Source: Candidatus Gastranaerophilales bacterium (lineage in GTDB: Bacteria; Cyanobacteriota; Vampirovibrionia; Gastranaerophilales; Gastranaerophilaceae). From it: a stretch of DNA of 64,000 bases. The stretch lies in contig JAFQOV010000003.1 in NCBI GenBank assembly GCA_017402995.1, forward strand, positions 62,001 to 126,000, in the 5' to 3' direction. Below, piece by piece: positions 23,019 through 38,767 of this stretch (positions within the stretch are counted from its first letter, which is position 1; every line of letters begins with the position of its first letter). The position numbers and the translations under genes were made by a program. Below the pieces are notes generated by a model. That model ran no database searches. It was not told the DNA's origin and saw nothing but the letters and a program-made list of their open reading frames with translations.

Positions 23019-23375
23019 TTAATCCCTAACCCTTCCGTTTGTGTTTTCTGTTGCTGTTGCGCCTTTGACAATCAACCCTCTCATATCAGGTGTTTTGGTA
23101 TCATCTAAAAATGTCCTAAGTTCGTCATATTTTGTATCACTTGGAATTGTTGCGCCATTACAAAGTAACCACCCCTCAGGTGCGCTATCTTCTAGCCACA
23201 TCACAACTGTACCAACAGGAACTGAACCAGAAACAACAGAAGATTTAACTTCAATATTTTTGGTCATCTTCTTTGTAATTACAGGTACAAAAGCCGAAAG
23301 TAAAACAGAAACCACGACAAGCGTAATTAGCATCTCAACGAGTGAGAACGCTCTTGAACATACTATTTTTATCAT
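23019..23375 (-). CDS. Type IV prepilin-like protein fused to a phage tail-collar-like domain (cassette A)
   Basis: 118 aa. Short basic leader MIKIVCSRA then F10SLVEML with the Glu at position +5 and a hydrophobic helix to about residue 30: a class III/type IV prepilin signal, with Ala in place of Gly before the cleavage site. After a short linker, residues 52-101 read PVGTVVMW...SAPEGWLLCNG...YDELRTFL...PDMRG, the pattern of phage tail-collar domains (Pfam PF07484). Paralogue of 43429-43785. GGATAAT precedes the ATG. The promoter contains an 18-nt A run in its spacer. No pilin assembly genes are in the window. Confidence 0.85.
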   Translation of the reverse strand: MIKIVCSRAFSLVEMLITLVVVSVLLSAFVPVITKKMTKNIEVKSSVVSGSVPVGTVVMWLEDSAPEGWLLCNGATIPSDTKYDELRTFLDDTKTPDMRGLIVKGATATENTNGRVRD

Positions 23376-24974: not shown

Positions 24975-25099
24975 TTTTCCCCCTAGGCTTTTATTTAATT
25001 GTATATTAAATATCAAAATGTGTTAATATTATTTTAACAAATATCAATTTTTTTTCTTCACTTGTTTTTATATAAATACAGGAAGGTGTTTATTTTTAC

Positions 25100-26494
25100 A
25101 TGATTAATCGTGTCGACAACAACATTAAAGCAAATAAGGTTTCGTATATTAATGCGCAAAACCCTATTAAATCTTGTTCGCCAAGTTTTTGTGCAAACGG
25201 ATTTTTCAACCTTCCATCTTTAACAAATAAAAGCTTAAGCCCTGTAAACACAAAGCTTACACCCGAAGAAGAAAAAAAATATACATATTTATTAAATTAT
25301 TTAAAAAACACTCCTGTTAGCCAAAATTCGCAAAATTTAACTTGCGCAAAACAATTGGATTTATTACTTAAAAATGGCAAATTGCTCTCAAAATCTTCTC
25401 ATGACAATTCAACAATGCTTGACAATTTGTTTGACATTGCAAACACAAAAAGAGCAAATGGTTTAAATCCAGAAACGTTGATTTCATCAACACTTGACGC
25501 GGTTTGCAATCCAAAAGTTGTTACTCAAACTTTTGGTGACATTCCGCAACAAGAAAAATTGGCAATTTTAAAAAGCTTGCCAAACAATTCACCTTTAAAA
25601 CAAGACCCTGGTGCAATGGACGTTAATGCTAGTGGTACTTGTGCTGCAGCTTCAATTGAAGTTACAATGGCGGATAAATATCCGGCTGAATTTGCTCGCT
25701 GGGTTTCAAAGTTGTCTAGCGAAGAAAAAGCTGTTGAACTAAACGTTAAATTAGATTCATTATCTAAAAATAAGCTTGACGCAATTACGATATTAAACAT
25801 TTTAGAAGCTAAAAAGAAAAACTTTAGTTTTGATAAAGTCAAAGTCGACGTTAAAACTGATGATAACGCCTATATTCGCGCTAATATTCAAAACAATCAT
25901 TGGGATAAGGGCGAAAGAAGCGTGGTTGATGTGTTAATTCAAAGTGCAATTATGCAACTTGGTTCGCAAAATACGTATGACGCTTTGACAGATACTAGAG
26001 GTGGTAATTTCAATTCTCATTCTCAAGGCTTGATTGAAATTGAAAAAACTTTTGTTGAATCTTTAATTAAAAATAAAGAAATCACATCTTTGGTATATCA
26101 ACAAATTGATGAAGATCAAAATCTAGTTGGATATAATTGTTCTTTTGATAAAATTCAAAAACATATCACAGATACAATTGATTCTGGCGATAATGTAATT
26201 ATTGGCTATGTTTTAACAAATGAAACATCTGGAAAAGTGGCTTCTGGAGCGTATAACCAAGCTGTTGATGGTTTACCAAACAAAGTTATTAATGGACATG
26301 AAATCACAATTGTTGACTATAAAAAAGATGCAAGTGGAAAATTAACCTTCATCTGTGTTGATACAGATGATGATAATCCTGAATATGTTGAATATAGCGC
26401 TGATTGGCTTCTTCCAAAGCTTCACCATGGTGGTTTTCCGGCGCATATCGTTGAAGCAGATGAAAAAGAAATCATGAAAAATATGAATAATTAA
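25100..26494 (+). CDS. Putative papain-fold cysteine hydrolase, lineage-specific
   Basis: 464 aa. N-terminus has a tag-like SPSFCANG (28-34), resembling the FxG tag of neighbours, and no Sec signal. A helical region (52-165) precedes DVNASGTCAAASIEVTM (C181 after a small-residue turn, at the start of a helix), and much later NGHEITIVDYK (H400) and FICVDTDDD (D421/D423). Cys at a helix N-terminus, then His at the start of a strand, then Asp in the following strand is the order expected of papain-like peptidases and transglutaminases. The assignment is an inference from these three blocks only. No close partner gene; it ends overlapping the convergent gene by 4 nt. Confidence 0.5.
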   Translation: MINRVDNNIKANKVSYINAQNPIKSCSPSFCANGFFNLPSLTNKSLSPVNTKLTPEEEKKYTYLLNYLKNTPVSQNSQNLTCAKQLDLLLKNGKLLSKSSHDNSTMLDNLFDIANTKRANGLNPETLISSTLDAVCNPKVVTQTFGDIPQQEKLAILKSLPNNSPLKQDPGAMDVNASGTCAAASIEVTMADKYPAEFARWVSKLSSEEKAVELNVKLDSLSKNKLDAITILNILEAKKKNFSFDKVKVDVKTDDNAYIRANIQNNHWDKGERSVVDVLIQSAIMQLGSQNTYDALTDTRGGNFNSHSQGLIEIEKTFVESLIKNKEITSLVYQQIDEDQNLVGYNCSFDKIQKHITDTIDSGDNVIIGYVLTNETSGKVASGAYNQAVDGLPNKVINGHEITIVDYKKDASGKLTFICVDTDDDNPEYVEYSADWLLPKLHHGGFPAHIVEADEKEIMKNMNN

Positions 26495-27633
26495 AATTCA
26501 AATTTCTTTCTATAGCTGAAACATTTTTCTTCTTTGGTGTCCATTTTGCAATGCAATTTGCATGAATCTGGTTGTTCGTCATATGTATAGCGATAGACTT
26601 CGCTTGCCAAATAAACAGAGCCGCGAGACCTCATATTAACTGTTGTTTGGACAAGTTTATCATCAGAAAAATAATATTTTAAATCAGAGCTTTCTTCGCC
26701 AAGAGCGCTTCTTTGGTAGTTGTTTTCAATATTTAAAACGTTTTTTCCATGGTTTCTTAAGGTAAATCTTTTTCCAACTCTTTTTGCACCATGGACATCT
26801 TGCGAAATGTCGTAATGAACTTCGTCTGGTTCAAATTCGCCTGCTGGAGAAAAGACATATTTTACGTCGCAATTTTTTTCATCAAGGCTATTTTTTCTTA
26901 AATTAAATTTAAGCTCTTTTAATTTATTTGGGAAATATTCGCTAAATTCAAAAATTTCATCAATTCTGACGCAATCTTTTGCATAGGAATCAATACCATT
27001 TGTGATTGAAAGCAATTGGTTTTCTTTAAATTTAAGAACAGATTTAGCGCTATACGATTCAAATAATTCACCTGTTTCTTCGTAATCTATGCGGATTTCG
27101 GTGTTTTTAAATTTATGTTGTTTGATGATATCTTGTTTGCCATTTTCTTTATAAATTTTAATTTCGCTTGGCAAACCATTTTCAAACAATGTTTTTCTTT
27201 TTAAATGTCCATGTTTGTCATATTCATTCATTGAAGAAACATTTGTTTTTTGGTTTATGCGTGTAAAGCTAAATTCGACAAATGAGCCATCTAGGTTTTC
27301 AATTCTTCTGAAATTACTGTGCAAGCCGACTGTTGCAATGTCATAAACTTGTTTAATATTTTTATCTGCATATTCTTTTGTTAAAAACGCAGTTTCAATA
27401 TTTTCTTTAATTTTTGGCAAAATACCAATACTTTGATATTCATTTTGTTTTAGTTGATATTGCGCGTCGCGTTGATATTTTTTAGCTTTTCTTAAATATT
27501 CTTTTTTCTCGCTTCTGTCAAAAAGCCCGCTAAAACTAACGCTATCTTGCGCTTGTACGTTAATTTTTGGGGTTGAATTTCCGCGTCGAGTTCGAATTAG
27601 GGGTGAATAGATTGATATATTTTGAATTTTCAT
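26491..27633 (-). CDS. Hypothetical protein with N-terminal FxG tag
   Basis: 380 aa. Begins MKIQNISIYS and carries VSFSG at 32-36, then a short lysine/glutamine-rich helix (41-70) and a long body made mostly of beta-strand-like segments with the recurrent look of YD/DGxxxxR repeats (for example NEYDKHGHLKRKTLFENG, KIYKENGKQDI), reminiscent of MORN/antitoxin-repeat sheets, though I cannot align regular repeats. No signal peptide or transmembrane helix. GTGAGG precedes the ATG. Function unknown. Confidence 0.78.
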   Translation of the reverse strand: MKIQNISIYSPLIRTRRGNSTPKINVQAQDSVSFSGLFDRSEKKEYLRKAKKYQRDAQYQLKQNEYQSIGILPKIKENIETAFLTKEYADKNIKQVYDIATVGLHSNFRRIENLDGSFVEFSFTRINQKTNVSSMNEYDKHGHLKRKTLFENGLPSEIKIYKENGKQDIIKQHKFKNTEIRIDYEETGELFESYSAKSVLKFKENQLLSITNGIDSYAKDCVRIDEIFEFSEYFPNKLKELKFNLRKNSLDEKNCDVKYVFSPAGEFEPDEVHYDISQDVHGAKRVGKRFTLRNHGKNVLNIENNYQRSALGEESSDLKYYFSDDKLVQTTVNMRSRGSVYLASEVYRYTYDEQPDSCKLHCKMDTKEEKCFSYRKKFEF

Positions 27634-36814: not shown

Positions 36815-38767
36815 CTATTTAATACGTTCTTCTTTATACATTTCAGGAATTGGAATATTGTGCATTTTTCCATTTCTTGCTTTGTATTTAATGCAGAATT
36901 CTTGATTTTCTTCTTTTGCTGTTTCGTAACTTCTCATCATGACTTCTGCAATTGTTCTTGGAACATTTGTATAAAGATACTGTTTAATTTCTTCGCCTTT
37001 TTTGTCGTTTTCTGCCCATTTTTCATCTTCCAAATAATCCATAAACAATTGGTGATATGTATAATTTGTAGATGTAAATCTGTCACGAATTTTTTTAGGC
37101 ATTTCAATATCGTTTTTAGTTAAATATTTATCTGCAATTGCAATTTTATATTCTTTTTTAGGGTCAATTTCGCTGAAGCCATTGCCTTTGCGGACTAAAA
37201 TATTTTTTCTTTTTGTTAATTCGTTTACTTCACCTTTTGCGGCAGCAACTGCTAATGCAGAACGGTCAATTTGAATATCTGACCAGTGGATAATTGTGTT
37301 TCTGCGTGGGTTATCAATGTTTTGTTTGATATTTTCCCAAATGACATCAATTAGCTCTTGACCAGTGATTTTGCCAGCTTTAACGGTAGATAAGTCTTCG
37401 CTAACGCCGTCAAAAACTTTCATTAAATCAAATGTATTTGCACCATTTTTCAAACCACCACGAATGATTGATGATTGAACCCCAACGATATCTAAATCCT
37501 CTTGCCCTTTTGTTTCAGACAATTTTTGTTTCAATAAAGTTGTTAGGAAGTTTGCAAGTTGTGAGTTTTTGAAACGAATTGTTTCTGTATATGACAAATC
37601 GCAAGGATTTTCAGGGTCATCATCATCTGGTAGTGTAATGATTGGCAGAGTTTCTTCTTTATATGTTGTATATATGTTCTTTTTAAGTTTAATATCTTCT
37701 TGCGTATAGCCATTAATTAAGCGTTTAAGAGCGTTTGTTTGGTTTTCGCCAAGCTTGTATTGGTTTGTTTGGAAAACAACGTCTTCTCTTTCAATTGAGC
37801 CATCATCTTCGATTTGTAAAGAAATTGCTTTTAAAATTTTGTTGTCTTCACCTAGTGATGAGATATTTGTATTACCCTTTCTTGTTGTTGCAATATCATG
37901 TTTGTGACCATCTAAAATCTCATTAATTTCTGGGATTTCATCTCTCACCATTTTAGATAGTCCAGTACCCATGTGAGATGATAAAATGATAATTCCATCT
38001 GGATATCTTTTTTTGAAATCGTCAACTTTTTCGCGAATTGATTGAATTGTATTACCAATCATTTCTTTTGTAAATTTCGCATCTTTTTTGTCATGATTTT
38101 CTACAAATTTTGTACCTTCAATTAATCCTGGGTTATAAAAATCAAAAGCCGGAATTGTTGCGCCAAGGACCATTAAATGATGTTTTTTATTTTCATCTTT
38201 ATCGTCATCAATTGTATATTCCTTTGAGCTGACAAAGTTTGAGTTTGGTCTGTCAAAGCCATATTTTTTCAAATATGGTGATTTTTCACCATCAACGTTT
38301 GTCATGATAGTTGTTAAGCCTTCAACAGAATTTAAAATTTCATATAGTTTTTTGTCGCCACCATCAAAACAGTGGTTTCCAGGTGTATATAAAGCGTCAA
38401 AGTTTGCCTCAGGTGCGATATTTTCGCCTGTAATTCCATTTTCTGCCAATGTTTTAGATGTGATGTTTGCTTGTTTTTTGATTTTTAAAATCAATAGGCG
38501 CAAAAAGTCTTTTTGAACTTCAAAGTTTGTCAGGCCTTCGTTTGTTCTCCAGCCTTTTTTGTTTCCGTTAATGAAGTAGTCGCCTGCATTAATATATAGG
38601 TTTAATGTGCTTTTTTCTTCGCTTTTTTGGAAAAATCTGTCTCTATTTTCTTTGATTGTATTGTATGTTTCAGGCAAGTTGGCAATGTTGCCGTGGTTGT
38701 CTGAATTTGCAACGATGTTAATTCGGGCACCTTTAAATGTGCTATTTGAAATGTTACCTACTCTCAT
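36815..38767 (-). CDS. FxG-tagged metallophosphoesterase, 5'-nucleotidase family
   Basis: 650 aa. N-terminus MRVGNISNSTFKG (F11-G13) replaces the Sec signal peptide usual in this family. Metal-site motifs in order: NSDNHGN (about 20-26), NAGDYF (about 61-66), PGNHCFDGG (about 130-138), LSSHMG (about 256-261) and DGHKHD (about 280-285). The C-terminal domain resembles the substrate-binding 5'-nucleotidase domain (GVQSSIIRGGLKNG, KAGKITGQELIDVI), so nucleotide or cyclic-nucleotide hydrolysis is likely. GAGGATATC precedes the ATG, 8 nt after the nucleotidyltransferase gene, so both are in one operon. Confidence 0.88.
   Translation of the reverse strand: MRVGNISNSTFKGARINIVANSDNHGNIANLPETYNTIKENRDRFFQKSEEKSTLNLYINAGDYFINGNKKGWRTNEGLTNFEVQKDFLRLLILKIKKQANITSKTLAENGITGENIAPEANFDALYTPGNHCFDGGDKKLYEILNSVEGLTTIMTNVDGEKSPYLKKYGFDRPNSNFVSSKEYTIDDDKDENKKHHLMVLGATIPAFDFYNPGLIEGTKFVENHDKKDAKFTKEMIGNTIQSIREKVDDFKKRYPDGIIILSSHMGTGLSKMVRDEIPEINEILDGHKHDIATTRKGNTNISSLGEDNKILKAISLQIEDDGSIEREDVVFQTNQYKLGENQTNALKRLINGYTQEDIKLKKNIYTTYKEETLPIITLPDDDDPENPCDLSYTETIRFKNSQLANFLTTLLKQKLSETKGQEDLDIVGVQSSIIRGGLKNGANTFDLMKVFDGVSEDLSTVKAGKITGQELIDVIWENIKQNIDNPRRNTIIHWSDIQIDRSALAVAAAKGEVNELTKRKNILVRKGNGFSEIDPKKEYKIAIADKYLTKNDIEMPKKIRDRFTSTNYTYHQLFMDYLEDEKWAENDKKGEEIKQYLYTNVPRTIAEVMMRSYETAKEENQEFCIKYKARNGKMHNIPIPEMYKEERIK

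What the first reader, a model, noticed from the sequence alone, without database searches (positions are those of the whole stretch)
25100..26494. Possible new papain-fold hydrolase with C181-H400-D421 order
The blocks DVNASGTCAAAS, NGHEITIVDYK and CVDTDDD are in the order and local setting typical of papain-like enzymes, within a 464-aa protein without a known family that I can name. The N-terminal SPSFCANG resembles the FxG tag. If active, and if the tag is a sorting signal, it could be an exported protease or transglutaminase acting in a host or prey environment.
Basis: inference. Interest (0 to 1): 0.55.

Follow-up and report, generated by a model that had tools for sequence, protein, structure and literature searches.

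The report
Papain-fold enzyme of gut Gastranaerophilales
Nearly every genome examined from this order of non-photosynthetic gut cyanobacteria carries an unnamed protein with the fold and catalytic residues of papain-type enzymes and an unusual extra segment inside the active-site motif; its substrate is unknown.

Summary
The ORF at 25100-26494 is real, the numbering is right, and C181 and H400 are invariant in 63 of 63 aligned homologues. D421 is kept in 62 of 63 (the exception is Asn) and D423 in 63 of 63. The protein is a near-universal, mostly single-copy gene of Candidatus Gastranaerophilales: 236 of 241 genomes, 50 of 50 genera. It has no Pfam, NCBIfam or PDB sequence match. A confident AlphaFold2 model has a papain-like fold, with calpain, staphopain, streptopain and bleomycin hydrolase as structural neighbours. 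When C181-D421 alone is folded, its ends superpose on the catalytic Cys and Asn of cathepsins and bleomycin hydrolase. Distant relatives carry a Gln six residues before the Cys; here that Gln is Q143, and in the order it lies 24-129 positions before the Cys. Most likely an active papain-fold cysteine hydrolase of a new family with an insert next to the catalytic Cys. The exported-effector idea is weak: the FxG tag is not conserved and no signal-peptide-like segment was seen. Substrate and activity are untested.

The parts
25080..25086 (+). Shine-Dalgarno-like AGGAAGG, 13 nt before the ATG
   Evidence: sequence
25100..26494 (+). whole coding sequence, 464 aa plus stop
   Evidence: homologues in 236 of 241 genomes of the order
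25100..25234 (+). variable N-terminal tail, residues 1-45, pLDDT under 50; holds SPSFCANG
   Evidence: variable among homologues
25262..25507 (+). helical N-domain, residues 55-136, also matched in distant relatives
   Evidence: secondary structure; profile matches to model positions 27-135 in far relatives
25526..25528 (+). Q143, proposed oxyanion-hole Gln
   Evidence: invariant in A1; Q in 18 of 18 class relatives and in 17 of 17 far relatives with this position aligned
25529..25639 (+). insert between Q143 and C181 (37 residues here; Q-C spacing 24-129 in 63 homologues; 6 in far relatives)
25640..25642 (+). C181, proposed nucleophile, first residue of helix 181-193
   Evidence: 63/63; aligned with catalytic Cys
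25715..26281 (+). long stretch between the Cys helices and the His strand (residues 206-394), with R273, Q281, Y293, D298, G310 invariant in the order
26297..26299 (+). H400, proposed catalytic His in strand 395-409
   Evidence: 63/63; 18/18 class relatives
26360..26362 (+). D421, proposed third catalytic residue (papain Asn position)
   Evidence: 62/63 D plus one N; aligned with catalytic Asn
26366..26371 (+). D423 and D424, conserved acids of unknown role
   Evidence: 63/63 and 62/63; 17/18 each in class relatives
26423..26428 (+). H442 and H443, conserved pair of unknown role
   Evidence: 62/63 and 63/63; 17/18 and 18/18 in class relatives

Best explanation
The gene encodes a papain-fold cysteine hydrolase, most likely a peptidase, that works as a lineage-core enzyme, probably inside the cell. 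C181 is the nucleophile, H400 the base, D421 the orienting residue (the Asn of papain) and Q143 the oxyanion-hole donor. A helical N-domain (55-136) precedes the core, and an insert between Q143 and C181 may gate the active site. Shown: conservation, predicted fold, equivalence of C181 and D421 with catalytic positions, homology to relatives with Q-x5-C. Inferred: catalysis, peptidase activity, cytoplasmic location, gating by the insert.
For: C181 and H400 63/63, D421 62/63 plus one N, D423 63/63. Confident model, pLDDT 89.8, pTM 0.87. Foldseek's top PDB rows are papain-family enzymes, best E 3.6e-4. VIA: calpain-3 core Z 10.7 over 211 residues at 4.0 A, staphopain C Z 10.5 over 159 at 3.3 A, streptopain 10.3, bleomycin hydrolase 9.9. 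The C181-D421 fragment (pLDDT 91.2) aligns end to end with human bleomycin hydrolase 73-396, cathepsin L 25-187, cathepsin S 25-184, Der p 1 34-190 and cathepsin B up to 219; C73 appears as the mutated Cys in entry titles, the other catalytic numbers are recalled. Far relatives: Gln at exactly C-6 in 17 of 17 where both are aligned and in 32 of 35 by direct reading; A4 consensus GHxVLV and NPWG, with Q, C and H invariant in 16 of 16. Near-universal presence.
Against: No sequence match to a characterised peptidase family reached a cut-off. VIA Z for the fragment is low (best 6.2; 1 of 997 chains at Z 5 or more), so only its end points are used. Foldseek TM-scores are low (0.12-0.50 in the rows shown). 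No coordinates, so the triad geometry was not measured. No substrate, partner or activity evidence. Two genomes of the family that are 99% complete lack the gene (G075, G110).
Confidence: 0.78

Rival explanations
1. A papain-fold acyl transferase or deamidase (transglutaminase-like, phytochelatin-synthase-like or glutamine deamidase) rather than a peptidase: the same Cys-His-Asp chemistry with a non-water acceptor or a side-chain amide.
For: The C-H-D order is compatible. The phytochelatin synthase Alr0975 scores Z 9.9, tied with several peptidases. A weak Gln_amidase match in 1 of 16 far relatives, E 0.2.
Against: Nearest structural rows are mostly peptidases. Far relatives carry NPWG/NSWG and Q-x5-C, the calpain/papain style (recalled).
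Confidence: 0.25
2. An exported or injected effector acting on host or prey, with the N-terminal tail as a sorting tag.
For: The N-terminal 45 residues are disordered and variable. Some other proteins nearby have SFxG near the N-terminus. Papain-fold enzymes are common effectors (general knowledge).
Against: FxG in 14 of 80 members, shuffles mean 5.2 and maximum 14; the query itself has no FxG in its tail. No signal-peptide-like stretch in the query. Present in 236 of 241 genomes of the order. No phage, plasmid or viral-contig relatives.
Confidence: 0.15
3. A pseudo-enzyme that keeps the fold for binding only.
For: Unusual spacing between Q143 and C181; no activity evidence.
Against: Q143, C181, H400 and D/N421 are retained in all 18 class relatives and C181, H400 and D/N421 in all 63 order members.
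Confidence: 0.07

Closest known systems
Calpain protease core (peptidase family C2)
   Same: Best VIA rows, Z 10.7 over 211 residues at 4.0 A; far relatives have NPWG as calpains do (calpain motif recalled)
   Different: No Pfam C2 match in the query; Gln and Cys are 38 apart rather than 6; Asp in place of Asn; sequence identity in the calpain rows only 8-14%
Papain-family enzymes C1A/C1B (cathepsins, bleomycin hydrolase, Pd_dinase)
   Same: Top Foldseek rows; C181 and D421 superpose on catalytic Cys and Asn
   Different: No Pfam match; added helical N-domain and a long middle stretch; no classical propeptide recognised
Staphopain (C47), streptopain (C10), C39 peptidases
   Same: Z 10.5, 10.3 and 9.3; sub-threshold C39-like profile matches in 6 of 37 members, best E 0.032
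   Different: Below all cut-offs; different size and insert
Phytochelatin synthase Alr0975
   Same: Fold, Z 9.9
   Different: No sequence match; transpeptidase chemistry untested here

Membership tests
Papain-like fold (clan CA type) | Cys at the start of a helix, later His in a strand, then Asn/Asp after the next strand | tested here: met
Papain-like fold (clan CA type) | oxyanion-hole Gln a few residues before the Cys (usually C-6; recalled) | tested here: inconclusive
   Q143 is invariant and homologous to the C-6 Gln of far relatives (17 of 17), but lies 38 residues before C181; spatial position not measured
Papain-like fold (clan CA type) | thiol-dependent catalysis | not testable with these tools
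   needs the protein
Peptidase C1 (papain family) | match to the family profile above its cut-off | tested here: not met
   no Pfam family for the query at E up to 1
Calpain (peptidase C2) | match to the family profile above its cut-off | tested here: not met
   no match for the query; 1 of 16 far relatives at E 0.12
Peptidase C39 / C39-like | match to the family profile above its cut-off | tested here: not met
   6 of 37 members sub-threshold, best E 0.032; one far relative E 0.003, 17.8 bits against a cut-off of 22
Transglutaminase core | match to the family profile | tested here: not met
   no Pfam family for the query at E up to 1
Secreted effector with FxG sorting tag | tag conserved at the N-terminus of family members | tested here: not met
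   14 of 80 members

The most novel reading that the evidence does not exclude
This is the lineage-core representative of an undescribed papain-fold superfamily of non-photosynthetic relatives of cyanobacteria: an intracellular, switchable protease whose catalytic Cys is separated from its oxyanion Gln by a gating insert, with a second site formed by D423/D424 and H442/H443, perhaps a metal site, that controls it much as calcium controls calpain.
Probability: 0.15. Interest if true: 0.7.

Novelty: new variant of a known kind. Interest (0 to 1): 0.45.

Why it matters
Gastranaerophilales are common gut bacteria (organism from record titles), and one of their near-universal genes has no name or function in the libraries searched. 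A papain-type enzyme kept by nearly the whole order, with a departure from the usual Gln-Cys spacing, gives a testable hypothesis for a core lineage function and a seed for a new family model that also covers multi-copy relatives elsewhere in the phylum.

Tried and rejected
Sequence routes that led nowhere: Pfam, NCBIfam and PDB searches with the query; PDB search with the order-level profile (its alkaline phosphatase rows at E 0.044 are taken as chance); NCBIfam scan of 37 members (scattered unrelated names). PDB search with the far-relative profile gave 11 rows, best E 0.0075; by name or recalled fold about eight are papain-like, none strong. Viral structures (weak papain-like and lysin rows), viral contigs, phages and plasmids gave nothing that helps. 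PADLOC: no family for the query. Promoter scan: no excess over shuffles.

Operon or partner idea: rejected. In this genus the divergent neighbour is a SIS/CBS sugar-phosphate isomerase-like gene (23 loci; Pfam); in other genera it is an OLD-type TOPRIM gene (cluster in 56 of 80 loci, within 1 kb in 55; Pfam). The own genome holds that TOPRIM gene about 43 kb away, so neither neighbour is fixed.

FxG sorting tag: FxG is about two-fold denser at positions 30-40 than further in, in 1124 ORFs of the fetched contigs and window (these include the family itself), but within this family it is not conserved. D423 as the triad acid: less likely than D421, since D421 aligns with the catalytic Asn and its one exception in the order set is N.

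Literature: search listings and passages on peptidases in PMC4451040; none describes this family. Only this open-access library was searched, and no supplement was read.

Rows dropped: one search used 63 of 70 loci (duplicates L068, L069, L070; fragments or truncated frames L027, L048, L063, L067). A1 used 37 of these. A2 used the query plus 65 of 80 loci (8 of unusual length, and 7 - L077, L082, L095, L099, L101, L121, L134 - left out by eye). In some searches, 53 distinct proteins of 57 loci with a match were kept, out of the 60 loci L156-L215. Some far-relative E-values are near threshold; family f8 rests mainly on the Cys block, and its row L182, which crosses stops, is taken as chance.

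Full report
What is there. The ORF 25100-26494 (+) codes for 464 residues. Its 3' end overlaps the convergent gene 26491-27633 by four bases; upstream it is divergent from a SIS/CBS gene. The window lies in a 1.7 Mb genome that is 96% complete. The best matches with a name come from Candidatus Gastranaerophilales assemblies, so the source is a bacterium of that order.

Distribution. The protein occurs once in its own genome, in 27 of 28 genomes of the genus and in 236 of 241 sampled genomes of the order, covering all 50 genera; among good-quality genomes 229 of 231. Most genomes have one match, a few have two or three. A profile finds it in three further families of the class with strong scores (f9, f15, f14) and weakly in f8, which has large genomes (222 of 289 genomes in all, most of them of the same order). 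Across the phylum 142 of 292 genomes match: outside the class the matches are weak and often multiple, up to 19 in one genome. Other phyla were not searched.

Conservation. In 63 order-level homologues C181, H400 and D423 never vary and D421 varies once, to N; in the 37-sequence alignment Q143, E197, R200, R273, Q281, Y293, D298, G310, E401 and H443 are also invariant. In 18 class relatives Q143, C181, H400 and H443 are 18/18, D421 is D in 17 and N in one, D423 and D424 17/18, H442 17/18. Not all order-level invariants hold there: D254 is mostly P and R273 is R in 12 of 18.

Fold. The AlphaFold2 model built on 66 sequences has mean pLDDT 89.8 and pTM 0.87; residues 1-45 are disordered and nearly all else is above 90. 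C181 opens helix 181-193, H400 sits in strand 395-409, D421 follows strand 415-420. Foldseek's first PDB rows are papain-family enzymes, though only two rows reach E 0.001. VIA gives calpain cores Z 10.7, staphopain C 10.5, interpain A and streptopain 10.3, bleomycin hydrolase and a phytochelatin synthase 9.9, C39 transporters 9.3; rows within 1 are tied.

Test of the triad. The aligned ends are 73-396 in human bleomycin hydrolase (2 rows), 25-187 in cathepsin L (3 rows), 25-184 in cathepsin S (2 rows), 34-190 in Der p 1, and an end at 219 in 13 of 14 cathepsin B rows in mature numbering, with starts mostly at 29-33. By recalled numbering these ends are the catalytic Cys (or within four residues of it, in cathepsin B) and Asn; C73 appears as the mutated Cys in entry titles. 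The Z-scores of this fragment are low (best 6.2), so this is positional support only.

The insert. Many far relatives match the profile in pieces, up to positions 134-135 and again from about 167-170, with almost nothing between. Position 134 is Q143 and 172 is C181. In all 17 far relatives with both aligned, the Gln is exactly six residues before the Cys; by direct reading 32 of 35 have Gln there. In the order the spacing is 24-129, with 38 in 31 of 63, and in class relatives 42-49. So Q143 is most likely the oxyanion Gln and the stretch 144-180 an insert, gained in this lineage or lost elsewhere. Far relatives also show GHxVLV and NPWG, where this family has GHEITI and DTDD: the same His, and Asp for Asn.

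What it does. The simplest reading is an active papain-fold cysteine hydrolase kept as a core gene. A peptidase is favoured by the structural neighbours and by the far relatives' motifs; a transferase or deamidase is open. The insert and the helical N-domain could regulate access to the site (inference). D423, D424, H442 and H443 are conserved with no assigned role.

Export. The query has no signal-peptide-like segment (at most 6 of 9 hydrophobic residues in the first 40, a crude count), no FxG in its tail, and family members rarely have one (14 of 80, against a mean of 5.2 in shuffles). I therefore do not support the exported-effector reading, but location was not tested.

Novelty. No library family covers it, and the paper searches (listings only, passages) found no description; this is one open-access library. 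It is a new family within a well-known fold, with an unusual Gln-Cys spacing.

Noticed in passing
L132:8897-9877 (-) and similar places in 56 of the 80 loci L071-L150: A stand-alone OLD-type TOPRIM protein, with no other Pfam domain matched, lies divergently next to this gene in other genera (within 1 kb in 55 of 80 loci; Pfam PF20469; matches GajA/Old models of PADLOC over the TOPRIM part); in the window's genome it sits about 43 kb away.
   Followed up: partly
window 26491-27633 (-): Convergent 380-aa protein with SVSFSG near the N-terminus and no Pfam, NCBIfam or PADLOC match.
   Followed up: partly
window 36818-38767 (-): Protein starting MRVGNISNSTFKGA, with an FxG near the N-terminus and a metallophosphatase-like NSDNHGN (label from the sequence, not from a search).
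   Followed up: no
window 23019-23375 (-): Short protein with a pilin-type N-methylation motif followed by a phage tail collar domain.
   Followed up: no
genomes G356, G358, G376 (among loci L186-L215): Distant papain-fold relatives give 16-19 profile matches per genome, mostly in open frames of 300-900 aa.
   Followed up: partly
L179:31-3138 (+): A far relative of the Cys block lies in an open frame of 8066 aa that also holds a zeta-toxin-like domain.
   Followed up: no
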